Shown: one piece after another, positions 1,682 to 12,204 of the stretch | Layout: every line of letters starts with the position of its first letter | Position numbering within the stretch: the first letter of the stretch is position 1 | Source of the DNA: a virus | Reading direction: 5' to 3' (one strand) | Virus record (IMG/VR): IMGVR_UViG_3300046517_002304 | Span: 62,001-126,000 of that record | DNA length: 64,000 bases | Notes under the pieces: generated by a model | The model's database searches: none | Told to the model about the DNA's origin: nothing | The model's input: only the letters and a program-made list of their open reading frames with translations | Position numbers and translations under genes: made by a program

Positions 1682-2515
1682 ATGAAAACTTTTTTAGAAT
1701 ATTTTCAACTATATGAAGACACATCAAATGATGTGCAGATGGCTTTCGGTGATGCCGAAAGTAAGGTAAAAAGTATATTCGCATACCTACACAAGGTTAT
1801 GATGAATACGTGGGGAAAACAGGCTCCATCGTGGGATGATCAATTAAAAAACAAGGTAATCGGTGAGCTACAAAACGTTATTGACAAGCTTAAAGGAAAA
1901 GTAAATAAAACCGAAGCATGTGATGCCGCAAAAATGGCAGTCAAAGAAAGCATTGTTTTGCTTGAAGGCGGCGCAATTCCAGATTGGATGCAAGGTATGG
2001 TGGGGCAGAATCGCACCGTTACAGTGGACCGTATGTTAAATGCGATGCAGGCCGAAGTAATTAAAATACTGCATAGTTTAAGAGACGAAGTACTAGTTCA
2101 GAAAGTTAGTAATGTTGCCGGTTCAGTTGAGAAAGTTGGCCGCAGAGTTTCTACAAATGCTTCTAAGAATATTCGCAATGTAGGAAAAAGTATTCAAAAT
2201 CAAATTTCGCAAGGCGTTAAAGTTCAGCAGAGCATGAGTGGAGCAGAAAGAAGTACCGCTAAATGGAATCTTGAACTACTTGCTTCCGCTCTACAGTCAA
2301 GGCCGGATATTAAGCTTTATTCTGGTGCATCTGGGACTAGACAGTTAAAGTTTGATCCTGCTGACCCTATACAAATGGCAAGTGTTCTAGACAAGGCTGG
2401 AAAAGAAAGAACATTTAGAATTAAAGTTAACGGAAAATATCATGACTTTGATATTACCCATGAAGGCGAAACAAGTAGGGTAATTGAAATGATTAAAGGT
2501 AACGAAGATGTTTAA
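1682..2515 (+). CDS. Leader-bearing (capsid-targeting-like) protein of unknown function
   Basis: Unknown 277-residue protein. The start is ATG 1682, preceded by AGGA seven bases upstream; the frame is also open from a TTG at 1643, but only the ATG gives the leader shared with 13 other genes. The leader MKTFLEYFQLYE ends in LYE, matching the [LI]xE site of T4-type prohead proteases. The body is mostly helical and Lys/Ser/Gln-rich (about residues 145-205 look coiled), followed by a compact C-terminal region with SGASGTRQLKFDP. It overlaps the next gene by 8 nt, so the two are probably translated together. Function not recognised; packaging in the head is inferred. Confidence 0.8.
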   Translation: MKTFLEYFQLYEDTSNDVQMAFGDAESKVKSIFAYLHKVMMNTWGKQAPSWDDQLKNKVIGELQNVIDKLKGKVNKTEACDAAKMAVKESIVLLEGGAIPDWMQGMVGQNRTVTVDRMLNAMQAEVIKILHSLRDEVLVQKVSNVAGSVEKVGRRVSTNASKNIRNVGKSIQNQISQGVKVQQSMSGAERSTAKWNLELLASALQSRPDIKLYSGASGTRQLKFDPADPIQMASVLDKAGKERTFRIKVNGKYHDFDITHEGETSRVIEMIKGNEDV

Positions 2516-2738
2516 GTTATGGTTAACAGAAGATAGCGACATTCGTATATCATGGCTTAGTGGCAACGGCAATACGATTAGAATTGTGTATCCTACTGGC
2601 GTATATGAATACGAAACTGATTATGGTCCAGTGGTTTTAGCTTCTGTTCGTAAGAACAAGTTCAAAACTGGGCAACTGGCCAGCGATCTGAAAAAGATGG
2701 TTGAAAGAGGCCATGCAACAGTTAAGAAAATACAGTAG
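2508..2738 (+). CDS. Small leader-bearing protein, weakly KTSC-like
   Basis: 76 residues. It begins inside the end of the previous gene, which implies coupled translation. The N-terminus MFKLWLTE then DSD is the shortest version of the shared leader, ending LTE. The body (TIRIVYPTGVYEYETDYG, then a Lys-rich helix) loosely resembles KTSC-type beta domains, which carry a Y-x-Y strand after an I-x-[FY]-x-x-G segment; I regard this as suggestive only. The last 17 nt overlap a convergent small gene. Confidence 0.75.
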   Translation: MFKLWLTEDSDIRISWLSGNGNTIRIVYPTGVYEYETDYGPVVLASVRKNKFKTGQLASDLKKMVERGHATVKKIQ

Positions 2739-2907: not shown

Positions 2908-3219
2908 ATGATTCCGTTTAAGTTATTTATAAAAGAGTCTATCTCGGCCCGATTACACGCGGATCAAAAGACATCTGCTAATAAGGAATTAGATCATTTA
3001 TCATCAAAGTTATGGCCTAAAATCCCCTTCCTTATGATAGCCGAAATTTTGGGAAAGTATGAAATATCATTTGATCCTAGAAATATTACTAGGTCATTAG
3101 ATGGAGAAGTTGATTTAGACATACTGTATTCAGGACTTCCAGTTGTTAATTCAAAGTTGGTAATTGTATGGTATCATATGGGGCAAGGTTCATTTAAAAT
3201 TAGATCTTACTTGAAGTGA
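2908..3219 (+). CDS. Leader-bearing protein, paralogue of 9174-9491
   Basis: 103 residues. The leader MIPFKLFIKE ends in IKE. The rest is homologous to the product of 9174-9491: both have a helical first half with a Trp-x-x-Ile-Pro element, then a beta half with [YI]-[SN]-G-[LM]-P-V-x-N-S-x-L and W-Y-x-M-x-x-G, ending Y-L. Two diverged copies of an internal-protein gene are implied. TATATA lies exactly 4 nt before the ATG and no Shine-Dalgarno is visible. Function not recognised. Confidence 0.8.
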   Translation: MIPFKLFIKESISARLHADQKTSANKELDHLSSKLWPKIPFLMIAEILGKYEISFDPRNITRSLDGEVDLDILYSGLPVVNSKLVIVWYHMGQGSFKIRSYLK

Positions 3220-3640: not shown

Positions 3641-5599
3641 CTATTCCTCTAATGTACTAAAGCCATCTTTCTTAGCAATAGTTATGGTTTCACAATTTTC
3701 TAATAAATCTAATAAGACTTGGTCGTGAGTGACGACAATTACCTGTCTTTCCGTGGCCAGTTCGCATATTAGCCTATACACTCCCTCAATGCCGTCTTTA
3801 TCAAAGAACGCCCCAACCTCATCTAGCATAACAATACTAGGCGAAGTTCCAGAAGATATTGACATAATATAGCTGAATGCTTGCGATATACTTAGGTCAA
3901 TCCTCTTTTTTTCTCCCCCCGACGTAGCGTTATAAGCAAATGCATCGCCGTCTGGTGGGCACCGTTCAATAACTTCATTTAGGTTATTATCAAATACAAC
4001 TTTTAACTTATCATTAATTAAAAAGTGCAGATAATATGCAATCTTATTATTAAGAGTTGGGATAATATCATCTAGAAGAACCTTTCTAATTCCATCTTCA
4101 CTAAATCCGTCTATCCAGAAATTATAGTAAGTTAACTCTTTGGTCGCGTCATCTATGTTCTGACTAATACCCGCTAGCTTTTTCTGACATTCGCTTAGTT
4201 CATTTCCTATAGTCTTAATAATTGACTTATACGGATTCCCGCCATTTAGCTCATGCTTGATAGAAAAAACTTTATCCTCTAGTGATGATATTTGTTCTTG
4301 GATTAAACGATTTTGATGACTTGTATCAGGCTTTTCTATTGAAATCAATTCTTTGATTCTTTGTTTAATAAGTAAAATTTTACCTTCTGTTGCCTTAACT
4401 TTATTCTTTATTTCTACCTGCATCGCCAATGCTTTTTGAGTATTATTTTTTGCGCCTTGGAACGTTGCTTGGCTTCCAGATAGAGCTATGCCGAGTGAGT
4501 CATTTTCATTTTCTAAGTCTTTTATGCCTTCTTTTTTATGGTTTAGAACCTTTTCGTAATTTTCTTTAGCCACAGTGCCAAAGCATATAGAGCAAGTGGC
4601 CCCTACTTGAAGGTTTTCTAACATATAAGCGTCTTTATTAATCTTTGCAATTTCTTTTCTGTTTCGCTCAATAGATGCTTCAATGGTTTTTACATGATTA
4701 TTGATGTCATTTTCTTTGCCTCTCATAATTTCTAATTTGTCATAAATTGCATTTATAGCAGTTAAACATTTTTCCTTACTGGCTTCGGCATCGGAAAGTA
4801 ATTGGCTATATTCCTTGATTTTTATTTGAGCGTTTTCGTATAACAGAATCTGATTTCCATCATCTGTTTGTAATATCTGCTGCTTCTTATTATCTAATAG
4901 CTTTTCTAATTCACTTAATTCTTGTGTTTTTTTGGTATTCCATATTGATTCTTGGTTAGTAAGTTGAGTTAACTTGTTCTGGTACGACTTTTCATTACCG
5001 AGTAGGTTTTCATAATGAATGCGCTGCTCTTTGATTGATGTGCTTACATTTTTGTATTCTTCCTTACTGATTTCGTAAAATTTATTATACTTGTCCAAAG
5101 CAAGGATGTTTTCTACAATTTTTCTTTTAGTGCTAGGTGGAGCAGAAAGAAAGTCATAGTTATTGTGCTGCCCAAAGCAAGCGATATTAACAAATGCATT
5201 ATAGCTTAATTTTATAATGTTCTCTAAGAGTTCTTGCGTAGCAGGAATACCGCCTAGAGTAAGCTCCTTGTCTTCTTTCCACAGCCTAAGAATATCGGGC
5301 TTTCTAGTTCTTAGAATTTTATAATCATCAAAACACAGTTCAACTTCTAATCCCTTTTTGTTTTTTTTGTTGATTATATCTGAATGAGATAGATTGCGAA
5401 TAGTTTTGCCGTATAAGGCGTAAACGATAGCCTCAAAGATACCGGATTTACACGAACCATTGCTGGTAGGCTCATCTTTGTCTACATCGTAATTTTTACC
5501 CTTTAGCAAGATAATATTACCGTGTTTAGTGAAGTCAACGAAAACAGGCTCTTCTCCGATAGAGAAGAAATTCTTAGCTTTAATAGATTTGATATGCAT
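3641..5599 (-). CDS. gp46: Recombination endonuclease subunit gp46 (Rad50/SbcC-like ATPase)
   Basis: 652 residues, SMC-like ATPase that with gp47 resects DNA ends for recombination-dependent replication. The Walker A region is unusual: a G-K at 34-35 and then SNGSCKSG at 46-53, with Lys51 in the expected place after a long insertion. Long coiled-coil arms flank a zinc hook, CSIC (Cys336 and Cys339). The ABC signature appears as TSGGEKKR and Walker B as VMLDE (Asp593, Glu594). It heads a three-gene leftward unit; upstream lies a 36-nt divergent promoter region containing mirrored TTATATCG and CGATATATAA elements. The partner gp47 gene lies at 7648. Confidence 0.95.
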   Translation of the reverse strand: MHIKSIKAKNFFSIGEEPVFVDFTKHGNIILLKGKNYDVDKDEPTSNGSCKSGIFEAIVYALYGKTIRNLSHSDIINKKNKKGLEVELCFDDYKILRTRKPDILRLWKEDKELTLGGIPATQELLENIIKLSYNAFVNIACFGQHNNYDFLSAPPSTKRKIVENILALDKYNKFYEISKEEYKNVSTSIKEQRIHYENLLGNEKSYQNKLTQLTNQESIWNTKKTQELSELEKLLDNKKQQILQTDDGNQILLYENAQIKIKEYSQLLSDAEASKEKCLTAINAIYDKLEIMRGKENDINNHVKTIEASIERNRKEIAKINKDAYMLENLQVGATCSICFGTVAKENYEKVLNHKKEGIKDLENENDSLGIALSGSQATFQGAKNNTQKALAMQVEIKNKVKATEGKILLIKQRIKELISIEKPDTSHQNRLIQEQISSLEDKVFSIKHELNGGNPYKSIIKTIGNELSECQKKLAGISQNIDDATKELTYYNFWIDGFSEDGIRKVLLDDIIPTLNNKIAYYLHFLINDKLKVVFDNNLNEVIERCPPDGDAFAYNATSGGEKKRIDLSISQAFSYIMSISSGTSPSIVMLDEVGAFFDKDGIEGVYRLICELATERQVIVVTHDQVLLDLLENCETITIAKKDGFSTLEE

Positions 5600-5635: not shown

Positions 5636-5923
5636 ATGGACTTTTACAAGTTTCTTAGTTTAATAGAGGCTCCTGCTCCCATGCCTCCAGCAGGTGGCGC
5701 ACCTGGGCCAATGCCTAATGCTGGACCAATGCCAGCCGCTCCACCAGGTCAGCCACCGCAAGCAGGAGCACCCCCACCAGAGCCACCAGGACCGCCAGGC
5801 ACAGAGCCACCACCAGATGGGCAAGATCAGCCAGTTCCTGATGTAGAAGTGCCTACAATGGACGCCTGGAGCGTTTTAGACAAGTTTGTTAAAAATAGCA
5901 AGGGTAAGAAAGCTAAGCCATGA
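5636..5923 (+). CDS. Leader-bearing Pro/Gly-rich protein
   Basis: 95 residues. The leader MDFYKFLSLIE is followed by about 55 residues made largely of Pro, Ala and Gly (APAPMPP, PPGQPPQAGAPPPEPPGPPG), then a short ordered tail with TMDAWSVLDKFVK and basic residues. The low-complexity part should be disordered, as in small packaged head proteins or peptides. TATATA lies 4 nt before the ATG. It overlaps the next leader gene by 4 nt (ATGA). Function inferred only from the leader. Confidence 0.8.
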   Translation: MDFYKFLSLIEAPAPMPPAGGAPGPMPNAGPMPAAPPGQPPQAGAPPPEPPGPPGTEPPPDGQDQPVPDVEVPTMDAWSVLDKFVKNSKGKKAKP

Positions 5924-6774
5924 ACTTTAAGAGCTGGTTATTGACCGAAATGCCTATAACCAAGTTCCAGTTGGCTGGAGATTGGAGTGATAATGCGCCT
6001 ACTAGAAAATTTAAGAGGGCTGACATAGGAATATTGACAAGTTTAAAAGGCGTAGAAAAAATACATAAGAAATGGTCAAATACCAAAGATAATTTTGAAT
6101 TATATTTTGTTAGGTCTAAAGATGCATCAAAATACGAGCAGATAGGCGAAGTTGATCTGCAATGGGTAAAAGATAATTTGGGATTACACTTAGCTCCATC
6201 AGAAGACGCTATTACAGTTATATTTACCGGAAATGTTGGCGGCACAAATGCTATGCCTATGAGCGCTTGGATTATAGCACATCGTGTTGGCCAGGCTCTT
6301 ATGGGAAGAAAGACGACTCATGAAGTTTTTGCAGAGCATTTTGTAGAAAACGTAAAAAGAGATTTCCGGGATATTTTAGAATGTATTTATAACAGAAAAT
6401 ATGACGTAGAAAATACCCGGGATTATTCTGCTCGGAATAGAATGGAACAAAAAATACAAGATGACATAATTTTACTTGCACAATCCGTGGCAACAATGAG
6501 GTCTGCAAGAGAAAAGAAAATTAATACGTTTTATGAATTTTGCTATGAATTAGTAGCACAATATGTTATAACTGGTCACGTCAAATTTAATCCTTTGCCA
6601 AAGGAAGTTTTTACAGGAAGACTTTGGGGTAAAGAGAGATATAAGGCTAGCTCTGGAATAACCGAACAAGACATGGATGGCTGGAATCAACGTCTTAAAA
6701 CTATGTCAAGGGATTATGAATATTATCTTGATCAGACGTTTGGGAGTATGATTGGCAAAATATTTGTGATGTAA
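5920..6774 (+). CDS. Leader-bearing protein of unknown function (284 aa)
   Basis: The leader MNFKSWLLTE ends in LTE. The body begins with a beta-rich segment that includes AITVIFTGNVGGTNAMPMS, followed by AWIIAHRVGQAL and a long helical region (residues about 110-280). The MPM-x-x-WII-x-HR-x-G pattern is one I associate with uncharacterised phage proteins that have a conserved His-Arg helix; a second metal-binding His is not evident here (HRVGQ instead of HRxGH), so I do not claim an enzyme. Start overlaps the previous gene by 4 nt. Confidence 0.8.
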   Translation: MNFKSWLLTEMPITKFQLAGDWSDNAPTRKFKRADIGILTSLKGVEKIHKKWSNTKDNFELYFVRSKDASKYEQIGEVDLQWVKDNLGLHLAPSEDAITVIFTGNVGGTNAMPMSAWIIAHRVGQALMGRKTTHEVFAEHFVENVKRDFRDILECIYNRKYDVENTRDYSARNRMEQKIQDDIILLAQSVATMRSAREKKINTFYEFCYELVAQYVITGHVKFNPLPKEVFTGRLWGKERYKASSGITEQDMDGWNQRLKTMSRDYEYYLDQTFGSMIGKIFVM

Positions 6775-6777
6775 TTT

Positions 6778-7605
6778 TTAATCTCTGTATCGGTCGGCAA
6801 CTCTACTAATTGGCACTTGGAATTCTACTTGCGATTTATAATAATCTTCGGTATTTTTTTCACCAGTTATCATTTCTAAAAACTCAATCCATTTATCCCC
6901 GTTCCAAGAATAAACTCTACCCCAAGAATACTCTGGTTTTTGTAATTCTTGTATTACCTTTTGATTAAACTTGTACCCTTCTTCGCCGTCAAGAATTCCG
7001 AAACTACTATGTTGCATTAAGTCATGTAGGTAATTTAATATTATGTGCTCTACATTTGGCTGTGATTGTCTTTGAAATCTAGTTGATGTTTTATTTCCTG
7101 ATGGGCTGATGTCGGGAACCTTGCCTCTATTTGCTAGATTAATAAATTTCCTAATGGGAATCTCTGCATGGCTTTCTACTGGATATATTACTCCAGTAAT
7201 ATACTTTGGGGGAATGTCGCGCTTTACCATTGTTTGCAAATGACTTTCTCTATCCCATTTTTCTCTATCGTCTACATCTGGTTCTAGCAAAGATGCAGGA
7301 ACTTCTAAAATAAAAATTATTTCTTTTCCACCGAAATTCATTACTGCTTTGTGAGAGTACATGTCAGCTCGGCCAGATGAAAAAGTAAAAAATATTCCAG
7401 GGCTTGTATTTTTATAATTCATTCTTGTCTTGTCAAATTTTAGGCCACCCTGAACAATTTCCCAGAAAAACTTTGTGCTTGTTCCGTGATAAACAACAAT
7501 TTTTTTGTTGCCTAGTGATTTCTTAAATTCAGGCTTATCAAATGGATCATGAACGATTGATAAATCAATCGGAGATTCGGAAACAAGCCATTTTCTAAAA
7601 TTCAT
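6778..7605 (-). CDS. Leader-bearing ADP-ribosyltransferase-like protein (Alt-like role inferred)
   Basis: 275 residues from ATG 7605, which starts the leader MNFRKWLVSE; eight further upstream codons are open but lack the leader. Residues 35-150 look like the PARP/KptA-type ART fold: VVYHGTS (His40), a GGL element, then GIFFTF (residues 70-75) and a helix with ADMYSHKA (Tyr83). Glu144 in YPVE is a possible third catalytic residue. ART enzymes transfer ADP-ribose from NAD to host proteins; T4 packages one such enzyme, Alt, with the DNA. TAAATA lies 5 nt before the ATG. The fold call rests on motifs only, and it could also be a non-enzymatic ART-like domain. Confidence 0.65.
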   Translation of the reverse strand: MNFRKWLVSESPIDLSIVHDPFDKPEFKKSLGNKKIVVYHGTSTKFFWEIVQGGLKFDKTRMNYKNTSPGIFFTFSSGRADMYSHKAVMNFGGKEIIFILEVPASLLEPDVDDREKWDRESHLQTMVKRDIPPKYITGVIYPVESHAEIPIRKFINLANRGKVPDISPSGNKTSTRFQRQSQPNVEHIILNYLHDLMQHSSFGILDGEEGYKFNQKVIQELQKPEYSWGRVYSWNGDKWIEFLEMITGEKNTEDYYKSQVEFQVPISRVADRYRD

Positions 7606-7610
7606 ATAAT

Positions 7611-7616
7611 TATTTA
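7611..7616 (-). promoter_or_regulatory. TAAATA element 5 nt before ATG 7605
   Basis: Minus strand reads TAAATA-ATTAT-ATG, supporting the internal ATG 7605 as the start of the ART-like gene rather than the longer frame. Confidence 0.48.
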
Positions 7617-7647: not shown

Positions 7648-8697
7648 ATGAAACAAGTTTTAATCTTCAGCGATGCTCATATTTCTTTACACAAAGGTTC
7701 TTTGGACAGAATGCAAGACTGTCTGAACGCGCTGGAGTGGGTGTTCACAACCGCTAAGCAAAAAAATATTGACACAGTTATTTTTGTTGGTGATTTGTTT
7801 CAAGACAGGCAGAAAATACAGGTTATAGCATATCAAAAGACATTTGAGATACTTGAAAAACACAAAGACATTAACCTGTATCTTTTAATCGGCAACCACG
7901 ATATGTGGAACTCTGAGAGTAGAGAAATATCTAGTATTTTTCCATTGCGCGCCTTACCAAAGGTAAAAATTATAGATCAGCCGTGTTGTCTTAATATTAA
8001 GGGCGTTAACGTAGACTTTCTTCCATACACCAAGAATCCCAAAGAATGTGTGGAAAATAACTTTAAAGAAAAGTCAGACGTTTTATTCGGCCATTTGGCG
8101 ATTGACGGAGCATACTTAAATACCTTTTATAATACCGTGTCAGAAGTATCTGTTGAATATGAGGGGGATATGGTTAAGGTAGATGTCGGCGTATTTAATG
8201 GTTGGAAGAAAGTTTTACTTGGTCATTACCACGGCGCACAAAAAGTTAATGAGATAGTAGAATACATCGGCTCCCCACTTCAGTTAAACTTTAATGAAGT
8301 GTTTCAGAAGAAACACATTATTGCGATGGACTTGGACAACCTGTTCTGCGAATATATTGAAAACACCTTCTCCCCGCGACACCTAATCGTTAAAGAAAGC
8401 GAAATTGGAAACTATAAGCTAAAAGGTAATTTTGTTAGAATTGAATCTGATAACCTAAGTTCATCTAAAATAATTGATATTAAAAATAGCCTAAGCGGAG
8501 TTGTGTCAACGCTGGAATTTAAAGAAATCAAGTCCAATAAGCACAATGAATTAAAGACAGATCTGGATAAAGCTAAAAAGATATTGTCTGAAGGTGAGAT
8601 TGTTGAGAAGTATATTTCATTAGTAGAGACTAGTCTTGAGAAAGAAAAGCTAATGTTAATCGGCAGACAAATTATTCAAAAAGGAACAAGTAGTTAG
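7648..8697 (+). CDS. gp47: Recombination endonuclease subunit gp47 (Mre11/SbcD-like)
   Basis: 349-residue calcineurin-type metallophosphoesterase, nuclease partner of gp46. The metal-binding motifs occur in order: SDAH (Asp9, His11), GDLFQD (Asp49), GNHD (Asn83-His84-Asp85), FGHLAIDG and LLGHYHG. The C-terminal third is the capping region. It starts 42 nt from the divergent ART-like gene; ACGATAAAC in that gap is the only promoter-like element noticed. Its last 4 nt overlap the convergent gene 8694-9140. Confidence 0.94.
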   Translation: MKQVLIFSDAHISLHKGSLDRMQDCLNALEWVFTTAKQKNIDTVIFVGDLFQDRQKIQVIAYQKTFEILEKHKDINLYLLIGNHDMWNSESREISSIFPLRALPKVKIIDQPCCLNIKGVNVDFLPYTKNPKECVENNFKEKSDVLFGHLAIDGAYLNTFYNTVSEVSVEYEGDMVKVDVGVFNGWKKVLLGHYHGAQKVNEIVEYIGSPLQLNFNEVFQKKHIIAMDLDNLFCEYIENTFSPRHLIVKESEIGNYKLKGNFVRIESDNLSSSKIIDIKNSLSGVVSTLEFKEIKSNKHNELKTDLDKAKKILSEGEIVEKYISLVETSLEKEKLMLIGRQIIQKGTSS

Positions 8698-9140
8698 CTT
8701 TTTGGTCCAGTTTTCTGTTTTGGCGGATTTAACATCGGTAATTTAGCAGGCTCTTTTTCTAGGTTTCTCATAAATGGAACTACTTCTTTAGCAATTTCAG
8801 ATGCTGAAGTTCCAGTAATAGCCTTTGTTCCATGTACCGCGACAGATTTATTGCCGCGATTATAGAGTCCTTTAGAGATTACGAATTTACCAGTTCCTGC
8901 GTGATAAGATAGGATTCCCGCCCATTCTCCGTCGTCAAAGTGTCTAGTGGCAATTATAATTCTTTGTGGCTTCTCATCAAATACCTGTTTAATGTGAAAT
9001 CCTGCCGACTTCAGCGCCGCAGATACATACCCTAGAGTTAACTTGGCATAGCCTTCTAAAACTTCCGGAAGGGCAGTACGGTAATTAATATTGATACTAT
9101 ACCTATTTGAGTCTTCGTTTAAGAATTCGCTAAATTTCAT
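8694..9140 (-). CDS. Leader-bearing protein of unknown function (148 aa)
   Basis: The leader MKFSEFLNE ends in LNE. The body has an alpha/beta pattern: YAKLTLGYVSAALKSAGF helix, IIIATRHFDDGEWAGILSYH strands, and a tail ending in a Pro/Lys-rich segment. No catalytic motif is clear to me. The 33-nt gap to the divergent leader gene at 9174 holds TATTATATA-like elements on both strands and no Shine-Dalgarno for this gene. Confidence 0.78.
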   Translation of the reverse strand: MKFSEFLNEDSNRYSININYRTALPEVLEGYAKLTLGYVSAALKSAGFHIKQVFDEKPQRIIIATRHFDDGEWAGILSYHAGTGKFVISKGLYNRGNKSVAVHGTKAITGTSASEIAKEVVPFMRNLEKEPAKLPMLNPPKQKTGPKS

Positions 9141-9173: not shown

Positions 9174-9491
9174 ATGCAATTTTCTGACTATATTTCCATT
9201 ACAGAAGCAAAAGAAAACAACATACCATCTGGTGTAAAGAAGATTGTAAATGATCAGCTTCATCAGATTGGTACTAAGTATTGGAAGTCTATTCCTATGA
9301 AAGAGATAGATGCTATATTAAAGCAGCAGGGCATCACGTATCAGGACGATGGTTTCTTTTTAACGGGAAGAGATAGTCGGGACAGCTTTGAGCTTATATA
9401 TAATGGTATGCCCGTATCTAACTCTATGCTAATTTTAACTTGGTATAAAATGCCGTCTGGTAATTGGGAAGTTGTCGCATATCTAAGCTAA
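9174..9491 (+). CDS. Leader-bearing protein, paralogue of 2908-3219
   Basis: 105 residues. The leader MQFSDYISITE ends in ITE. It shares with the product of 2908-3219 a Trp-x-x-Ile-Pro helix start, an ELIYNGMPVSNSMLILTWY core and a Y-L ending, over nearly the whole length, so the two arose by duplication and have diverged widely. It is followed 1 nt later by another leader gene. Function unknown. Confidence 0.8.
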   Translation: MQFSDYISITEAKENNIPSGVKKIVNDQLHQIGTKYWKSIPMKEIDAILKQQGITYQDDGFFLTGRDSRDSFELIYNGMPVSNSMLILTWYKMPSGNWEVVAYLS

Positions 9492-9492
9492 C

Positions 9493-9843
9493 ATGGACTT
9501 TAAACACTGGGTAAATGAAGTTAAAACAATTCCTTTAGGAGATTGTTTTAGGTTTGCCACTATGCGGGCAGTTGAAATGATCGGCGATGGCATTATACCG
9601 CCAAAAGATATAGTTGTAGTTCATGCTATAGTACACCCTAGATGGGGCGGAAATCCATATCCTCATGCATGGATAGAATCTAGGGGCAAGTGCTGGGATT
9701 GGCAAATGCGTCAGACTAAAACGTATTCTATACCTGTCGCTGATTTCTATAAGGAATACAATCCTACAGAAATCAAGCGTTACACTGGTAATGAAGCGTT
9801 AAGAACTATGATTAAAACTGGCCATCATGGGCCATGGAATTAA
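9493..9843 (+). CDS. Leader-bearing protein with Cys-His-Asp (papain/transglutaminase-like) pattern
   Basis: 116 residues. The leader MDFKHWVNE is followed by LGDCFRFA (Cys18 at the start of a helix), VVVHAIVHP, then PHAWIES (His58) and KCWDW (Asp69), and it ends GHHGPW. The order Cys, then His in a strand before A-W-[IV]-E, then Asp is what thiol peptidases and transglutaminase-like enzymes show, and I recall similar phage proteins with HAWVE. A hydrolase or transglutaminase activity is a hypothesis. It follows the preceding leader gene by 1 nt, so they are likely one transcript. Confidence 0.72.
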   Translation: MDFKHWVNEVKTIPLGDCFRFATMRAVEMIGDGIIPPKDIVVVHAIVHPRWGGNPYPHAWIESRGKCWDWQMRQTKTYSIPVADFYKEYNPTEIKRYTGNEALRTMIKTGHHGPWN

Positions 9844-11970: not shown

Positions 11971-12204
11971 TTACTTCTTCTTACTCTTCTTCCTGCCTAG
12001 TTCAACAGCGAGTGATCCCGTTGGAGATCTAGCTGCGGAGTAGAGTGGTGGGTAAATACTGTCGTCTCCATTTGGAGCGGCAGTTTCGGGCGGGTAGCCT
12101 TTAATTCCAGGAAAAGACGAAACGGTTCTAATGGACTTCTCTGTTAGTTCTGGAAGAGCGATATCTTTGTTCTCTGTTTCTGCCCACTGACTGAATGTAA
12201 TCAT
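11971..12204 (-). CDS. Leader-bearing small protein (77 aa)
   Basis: The N-terminus MITFSQWAE is a weaker match to the shared leader (WAE instead of [LI]xE). The remainder is Pro/Ser-rich with YPPETAAPNGDD and a basic tail GRKKSKKK. It has an AGGA ribosome site 12 nt upstream. Membership in the packaged set is less certain than for the others. Function unknown. Confidence 0.68.
   Translation of the reverse strand: MITFSQWAETENKDIALPELTEKSIRTVSSFPGIKGYPPETAAPNGDDSIYPPLYSAARSPTGSLAVELGRKKSKKK

What the first reader, a model, noticed from the sequence alone, without database searches (positions are those of the whole stretch)
6778..7605. Candidate packaged ADP-ribosyltransferase, an Alt analogue of a different family
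Seen: YHGTS, a GGL element and GIFFTF in the order used by PARP/KptA-type ART domains, behind a leader MNFRKWLVSE. Known: T4 Alt is a packaged ART (R-S-E type) that modifies host RNA polymerase at injection. Inference: this phage evolved the same strategy with an H-Y-type ART.
Basis: partly seen in the sequence, partly recalled or inferred. Interest (0 to 1): 0.78.

Follow-up and report, generated by a model that had tools for sequence, protein, structure and literature searches.

The report
Capsid-tagged PARP-like ADP-ribosyltransferase in megaphage
A 511-kb T4-like phage encodes a PARP-type ADP-ribosyltransferase that carries the same kind of short N-terminal tag that T4 uses to load proteins into its head, so it is probably injected into the host with the DNA; the same tag-plus-enzyme design recurs in other large phages.

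Summary
The 275-aa ORF has H40-G-T-S, G54-L55 and G70-I-F-F in the order and spacing of PARP/KptA domains. The fold is well supported: Pfam PARP E=1.8e-4 (its 46%-identical ortholog passes the curated cut-off), all 42 PDB profile hits are PARPs or KptA, and an AlphaFold model from 33 sequences has only ART-superfamily chains among the 50 best PDB folds listed. H40, F72, Y83 and Q124 are conserved in the ortholog, and an H-Y-Q active site is likely. Packaging is inferred, but on more than a recalled leader. M-x-F-xx-W-L has the Y4/F7 spacing that targets T4 IPIII. It starts 18 of 123 genes here against 1 of 561 internal Met. In a T4 test stretch it picks ipII and ipIII plus one spurious ORF. 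The phage has T4 gp21 protease and gp23 capsid. A second ART in this phage has the same leader and a TATAAATA late-promoter box; its KptA has neither. Leader-plus-ART also occurs in KVP40 and about ten other phage records. Not shown: NAD use, presence in virions, the target. Packaged HY-type ARTs were already predicted (Iyer 2022), so this is a new variant of a known kind.

The parts
6778..7605 (-). CDS, 275 aa: leader + H-Y-type ADP-ribosyltransferase domain + helical C-terminal region
7576..7605 (-). Leader MNFRKWLVSE (residues 1-10), T4 capsid-targeting-sequence-like; F3/W6 have the spacing of IPIII Y4/F7; V8-S9-E10 is a possible gp21 site
   Evidence: M-x-F-R-K-W-L conserved in ortholog L109
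7177..7515 (-). ART core (residues 31-143), modelled mostly at pLDDT 81-92 (one loop about 61)
7486..7488 (-). His40, catalytic His of the HGT motif
   Evidence: invariant
7390..7392 (-). Phe72, at the position of the canonical catalytic Tyr
7357..7359 (-). Tyr83, second aromatic of the nicotinamide pocket (position of PARP1 Y907)
7234..7236 (-). Gln124, likely third catalytic position (strand 124-127, Q-x7-P)
6781..7155 (-). C-terminal helical region (residues 151-275), no known family, conserved in ortholog; possible target-recognition part (inference)
7611..7616 (-). TAAATA, T4-late-promoter-like hexamer, 11 nt before the ATG
1682..2515 (+). Neighbour with leader MKTFLEYFQLYE, weak head-maturation-protease match
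2508..2738 (+). Neighbour with leader MFKLWLTED (outside the strict motif)
2908..3219 (+). Neighbour with leader MIPFKLFIKES
5636..5923 (+). Neighbour with leader MDFYKFLSLIEA
5920..6774 (+). Neighbour with leader MNFKSWLLTE
8694..9140 (-). Neighbour with leader MKFSEFLNE; its ortholog is adjacent to the ART ortholog in another phage
9174..9491 (+). Neighbour with leader MQFSDYISITEA
9493..9843 (+). Neighbour with leader MDFKHWVNE
11971..12204 (-). Neighbour with leader MITFSQWAETE
3641..5599 (-). T4 gp46-like (SbcC) gene, no leader
7648..8697 (+). T4 gp47-like (SbcD) gene, no leader

Best explanation
The gene encodes a head-packaged effector. During late infection, residues 1-10 act as a T4-type capsid targeting sequence that takes the protein into the prohead core, where the gp21-type protease may trim it near E10. 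On infection it enters the next host with the DNA. Its PARP-like H-Y-[Q] ART domain then uses NAD to ADP-ribosylate (probably mono-) a host macromolecule. Shown: the ART fold (by prediction and homology), the conserved pocket residues, the leader and its recurrence, the T4-type protease and capsid genes, and the late-type promoter element. Inferred: packaging, injection, catalysis and target.
For: ART: PARP E=1.8e-4; ortholog L109, 46% identical, 26.8 bits against a cut-off of 26.7; profile against PDB gives only PARPs and KptA, best E=0.006; AF2 with 33 sequences pLDDT 76, core mostly 81-92; the 50 best PDB folds listed are all ARTs; best viral fold matches include phage G gp53 and the nt-1 homolog. 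Leader: 18/123 gene starts against 1/561 internal Met, Fisher p=2e-13; [LIV]xE near the leader in 9/18 against 13/104 other genes, p=7e-4; in the T4 test stretches the motif picks ipII, ipIII and one spurious ORF; IPIII targeting depends on residues 4 and 7 and processing on 8 and 10 (PMC9026906). Head genes: S77 protease E=1e-25, Gp23 E=5e-87. Second ART in this phage: leader MNFKVWLEA and TATAAATA; KptA of this phage: Shine-Dalgarno, no leader. Leader-plus-ART in other phages: 11/69 against 34/1824 genes, p=3e-7 with the looser motif. TAWATA exactly 10 nt before ATG in 15/122 genes, including tail genes, and near -10 in 8/18 leader genes.
Against: No virion proteomics. The leader motif was defined after seeing this genome, and other phage loci were picked by an ART motif. 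With the stricter leader motif the enrichment in other phages is weak (4/69 against 28/1824, p=0.03). The canonical Tyr is Phe (F72) and the third residue is Gln, so activity is uncertain. The ortholog leader (MEFRKWLEMAMD) lacks a clear [LIV]xE cleavage site. The leader is modelled with low confidence. PDB TM-scores are modest (0.25-0.58).
Confidence: 0.68

Rival explanations
1. It is an ART made and used inside the infected cell (ModA/ModB-like), and the leader is only an assembly or solubility tag without packaging.
For: No virion data. Leader cleavage site not conserved in the ortholog. The leader is not limited to known head proteins.
Against: Late-type promoter shared with structural genes. 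Leader spacing equals the mutationally mapped T4 CTS. In T4 such leaders mark injected proteins.
Confidence: 0.17
2. ART-fold protein that is packaged but catalytically inactive, acting as a binding inhibitor like T4 Ip1-3 (anti-restriction).
For: F72 and Q124 depart from H-Y-E. T4 Ip1-3 share only the leader and each blocks a different GmrSD enzyme (PMC12373910).
Against: H40, Y83 and Q124 are retained at 46% identity. Q at this place recurs in relatives, and HY-[EDQ] is a recognised active clade (PMC9503650).
Confidence: 0.12
3. KptA/Tpt1-type RNA 2'-phosphotransferase used in tRNA repair.
For: The best Foldseek PDB hits are Tpt1/KptA.
Against: No PTS_2-RNA match. Only 39 residues precede H40, so there is no room for the N-terminal lobe. 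The phage has a separate full KptA, 141 bits, without leader.
Confidence: 0.03

Closest known systems
T4 Alt
   Same: ART gene in a T4-type phage; Alt is packaged with an N-terminal propeptide and injected
   Different: No sequence relation. Alt is an R-S-E type of 682 aa with a different propeptide; no Alt homolog found in this phage (no positive control)
T4 internal proteins IPI-III (Ip1-3)
   Same: Short N-terminal CTS with aromatic residues spaced by three
   Different: IPs are small GmrSD inhibitors, not enzymes (PMC12373910)
KVP40.0290 family (Schizotequatrovirus; annotated hypothetical, or PARP catalytic domain in Vibrio phage 1.081)
   Same: HGT...GL...VFIT ART core; leader MKNLKSFMEE resembles IPIII MKTYQEFIAE
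   Different: About 100 extra residues between leader and ART; different third catalytic position and C-terminus
PART (PARP), N4-ART and polyvalent-protein ARTs of phages (HY-[EDQ] clade)
   Same: Same catalytic class, and packaging already proposed (PMC9503650)
   Different: There packaging was inferred from MuF or portal fusion and gene neighbourhood, not from a T4 CTS in front of the ART
KptA/Tpt1
   Same: ART fold, closest solved structures
   Different: No N-lobe and no family match; the phage has its own KptA

Membership tests
ART superfamily, H-Y-[EDQ] clade (PARP-like) | ART fold | tested here: met
ART superfamily, H-Y-[EDQ] clade (PARP-like) | Catalytic His in HG[TS] | tested here: met
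   H40 invariant
ART superfamily, H-Y-[EDQ] clade (PARP-like) | Catalytic Tyr on the second strand | tested here: inconclusive
   F72 at the canonical place; Y83 at the second aromatic place
ART superfamily, H-Y-[EDQ] clade (PARP-like) | E/D/Q on the later strand | tested here: inconclusive
   Q124, conserved in ortholog and some relatives, on predicted strand 124-127; geometry not measured
ART superfamily, H-Y-[EDQ] clade (PARP-like) | NAD-dependent activity | not testable with these tools
   needs assay
Pfam PARP PF00644 | Score over curated cut-off | tested here: not met
   21.5 against 26.7 bits for this protein; ortholog 26.8
T4-type CTS-bearing internal head protein | 10-residue leader with aromatic/hydrophobic residues three apart | tested here: met
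T4-type CTS-bearing internal head protein | gp21 site [LI]xE at the leader end | tested here: inconclusive
   VSE here, no clear site in ortholog
T4-type CTS-bearing internal head protein | T4 gp21-type protease in the genome | tested here: met
T4-type CTS-bearing internal head protein | Present in virion | not testable with these tools
   needs virion mass spectrometry
T4 Alt family | Sequence homology to Alt (R-S-E type) | tested here: not met
   HY-type motifs instead
KptA/Tpt1 | PTS_2-RNA profile match and N-terminal lobe | tested here: not met
   the KptA of this phage is a different gene

The most novel reading that the evidence does not exclude
T4's capsid targeting tag is a modular sorting code kept from T4 to 500-kb phages. 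It delivers a family of PARP-like ADP-ribosyltransferases (two in this phage) together with about twenty other tagged proteins, so the injected effector set of a T4-like megaphage can be read from sequence.
Probability: 0.45. Interest if true: 0.78.

Novelty: new variant of a known kind. Interest (0 to 1): 0.62.

Why it matters
If true, the Alt strategy (inject an ART with the DNA) was reached with an unrelated ART clade by putting the T4 packaging tag in front of it. The same tag marks a cluster of unknown neighbours as candidate injected anti-defence or takeover proteins. It gives cultured phages (nt-1, KVP40) in which a PARP-like ART can be looked for in virions.

Tried and rejected
Single-sequence AlphaFold gave no usable model (pLDDT 39.5). 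Six-peptide, gp47 and alignment scans of viral contigs found no close relatives; degenerate DNA patterns did. A KVP40/Salicola alignment recovered only two KVP40-type phages. KptA identity rejected. T4 Alt homology rejected. The WGR-PARP of LR756511 (L035) was considered as an ortholog and rejected: different architecture and no leader. One fair-control test of leader enrichment with the stricter motif was weak and is reported as such. No special RNA fold around the start.

Full report
What is there. The window is 62,001-126,000 of a 511,233-base virus record. That record has a T4-type prohead protease (PF03420, E=1.4e-25) and a T4-type major capsid protein (Gp23, E=4.8e-87). The gene lies between gp46-like and gp47-like genes.

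Fold. Pfam PARP matches residues 25-90 at E=1.8e-4, below its curated cut-off. Relatives found are KVP40.0290 and its Schizotequatrovirus family, Salicola phage SCTP-2 gp401 and Bacillus phage G gp53. A profile of these against all PDB sequences returns only PARPs and KptA. A degenerate DNA scan found an ortholog, L109, 46% identical over the whole length, and that protein passes the Pfam PARP cut-off. In the ortholog's contig it sits next to the ortholog of window gene 8694-9140, and the contig also holds tail genes homologous to window 27-42 kb. AlphaFold failed on the single sequence, but with 33 aligned sequences from fetched loci it gave pLDDT 76. The ART core, residues 31-143, is mostly at 81-92 in ten-residue blocks, with one loop near 61. 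The 50 best PDB folds listed are all ART-superfamily chains: Tpt1/KptA, Rhs toxins TreX/TreTu, PARP13/15 and others. TM-scores are modest. In the viral library the top named matches include phage G gp53 and the nt-1 homolog.

Active site. H40 is invariant. The PARP1 alignment puts the canonical Tyr position on F72 and the second pocket Tyr on Y83. The third position is most likely Q124: it is conserved with L109, starts predicted strand 124-127, and precedes I-P by the same spacing as Q in relatives such as L104 and L096. HY-[EDQ] is a recognised clade (PMC9503650). Activity is therefore plausible, not shown.

Leader. T4 ipII and ipIII begin MKTYQEFIAEA and ipI MKTFKEF. In IPIII the first ten residues suffice for packaging; targeting depends on residues 4 and 7, processing on 8 and 10, and gp21 cuts after [LI]xE (PMC9026906). 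The leader here, M-N-F-R-K-W-L-V-S-E, has F3 and W6 three apart. A motif M-x(1-2)-[FYW]-xx-[FWY]-[aliphatic] begins 18 of 123 genes in 108 kb of this genome, against 1 of 561 internal methionines. In 51 T4 ORFs it picks ipII, ipIII and one ORF in the tRNA region that is probably spurious. [LIV]xE is enriched at the leader ends (9/18 against 13/104). The leader genes cluster in this part of the window (seven within 14 consecutive genes, permutation p=0.009). The motif was defined after reading this genome, so the p-values are descriptive.

Internal contrast. A profile search of the whole record finds three ART-fold genes. They are this one; a second at G000:246,244-247,593 with leader MNFKVWLEA; and a canonical KptA without leader. 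The second ART has TATAAATA with TAAATA 10 nt before the ATG. This gene has TAAATA at -11. The KptA has a Shine-Dalgarno-like AAGGAAG and no such box. Genome-wide, TAWATA lies exactly 10 nt before ATG in 15 of 122 genes, at most 3 at any other position, mainly tail genes and leader genes. It lies within -13 to -8 in 8/18 leader genes against 15/104 others (p=0.006). This suggests late expression from promoters whose transcripts start near the AUG; that step is inference.

Other phages. Among ART ORFs fetched by motif, leaders such as MKTFKEFLIES (L098), MISFKQFISEA (L206), MKFSKYYSLVSE (L052), MISLKKLLIE (L203) and MRFYEILFEG (L219) precede the domain. With a looser motif 11/69 ART genes have a leader against 34/1824 other genes in the same loci (p=3e-7); with the stricter one 4/69 against 28/1824 (p=0.03). 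Several of these phages have Gp23 or S77 protease.

Judgement. The ART identity is about 0.95 likely, packaging about 0.75, catalysis about 0.75. RNAP as the target is a guess. Packaging of HY-clade ARTs in phage heads was proposed before from MuF fusions and gene neighbourhood (PMC9503650). T-even internal proteins have been found by their leader (PMC12373910). What is new here is the combination, a T4-type CTS in front of a PARP-like ART, its occurrence twice in one phage, and its recurrence elsewhere.

Noticed in passing
window and G000 pieces L010-L012; e.g. window 7611-7616: TAWATA hexamer exactly 10 nt before ATG in 15 of 122 genes, often without Shine-Dalgarno: looks like a T4-type late promoter giving leaderless or near-leaderless transcripts.
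   Followed up: partly
L243:1117-2466 (G000:246,244-247,593 +): Second leader-bearing ART (449 aa) in the same phage with TATAAATA upstream.
   Followed up: partly
window 9493-9843: Leader gene with LGDCFRFA...PYPHAWIE...CWD, resembling a papain/transglutaminase-like Cys-His-Asp enzyme; no Pfam match.
   Followed up: no
window 1682-2515: MKTFLEYF leader followed by a weak match to a head maturation protease PHROG (E=3e-4), besides the main gp21-type protease elsewhere.
   Followed up: no
L035:1411-3000 (LR756511.1): 595-kb megaphage encodes a full WGR-domain PARP with canonical GCYFAD and NNEWIIYD motifs, no capsid leader.
   Followed up: partly
L039:141-1890 (LR756508.1): Three consecutive genes with M[RQ]LKKLLVE-type or MVRLYRILKE leaders, the third an ART-like domain: a likely variant of the same tag in another megaphage.
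   Followed up: partly
L010:7483-7728: Small ORF joining a zinc-ribbon-like start to a fragment of the major capsid protein.
   Followed up: no
L010:7771-10607: Tandem paralogous pair (477 and 468 aa) with MRFRAYLESF/MRFSQFIESF leaders about 5 kb downstream of the major capsid gene.
   Followed up: no
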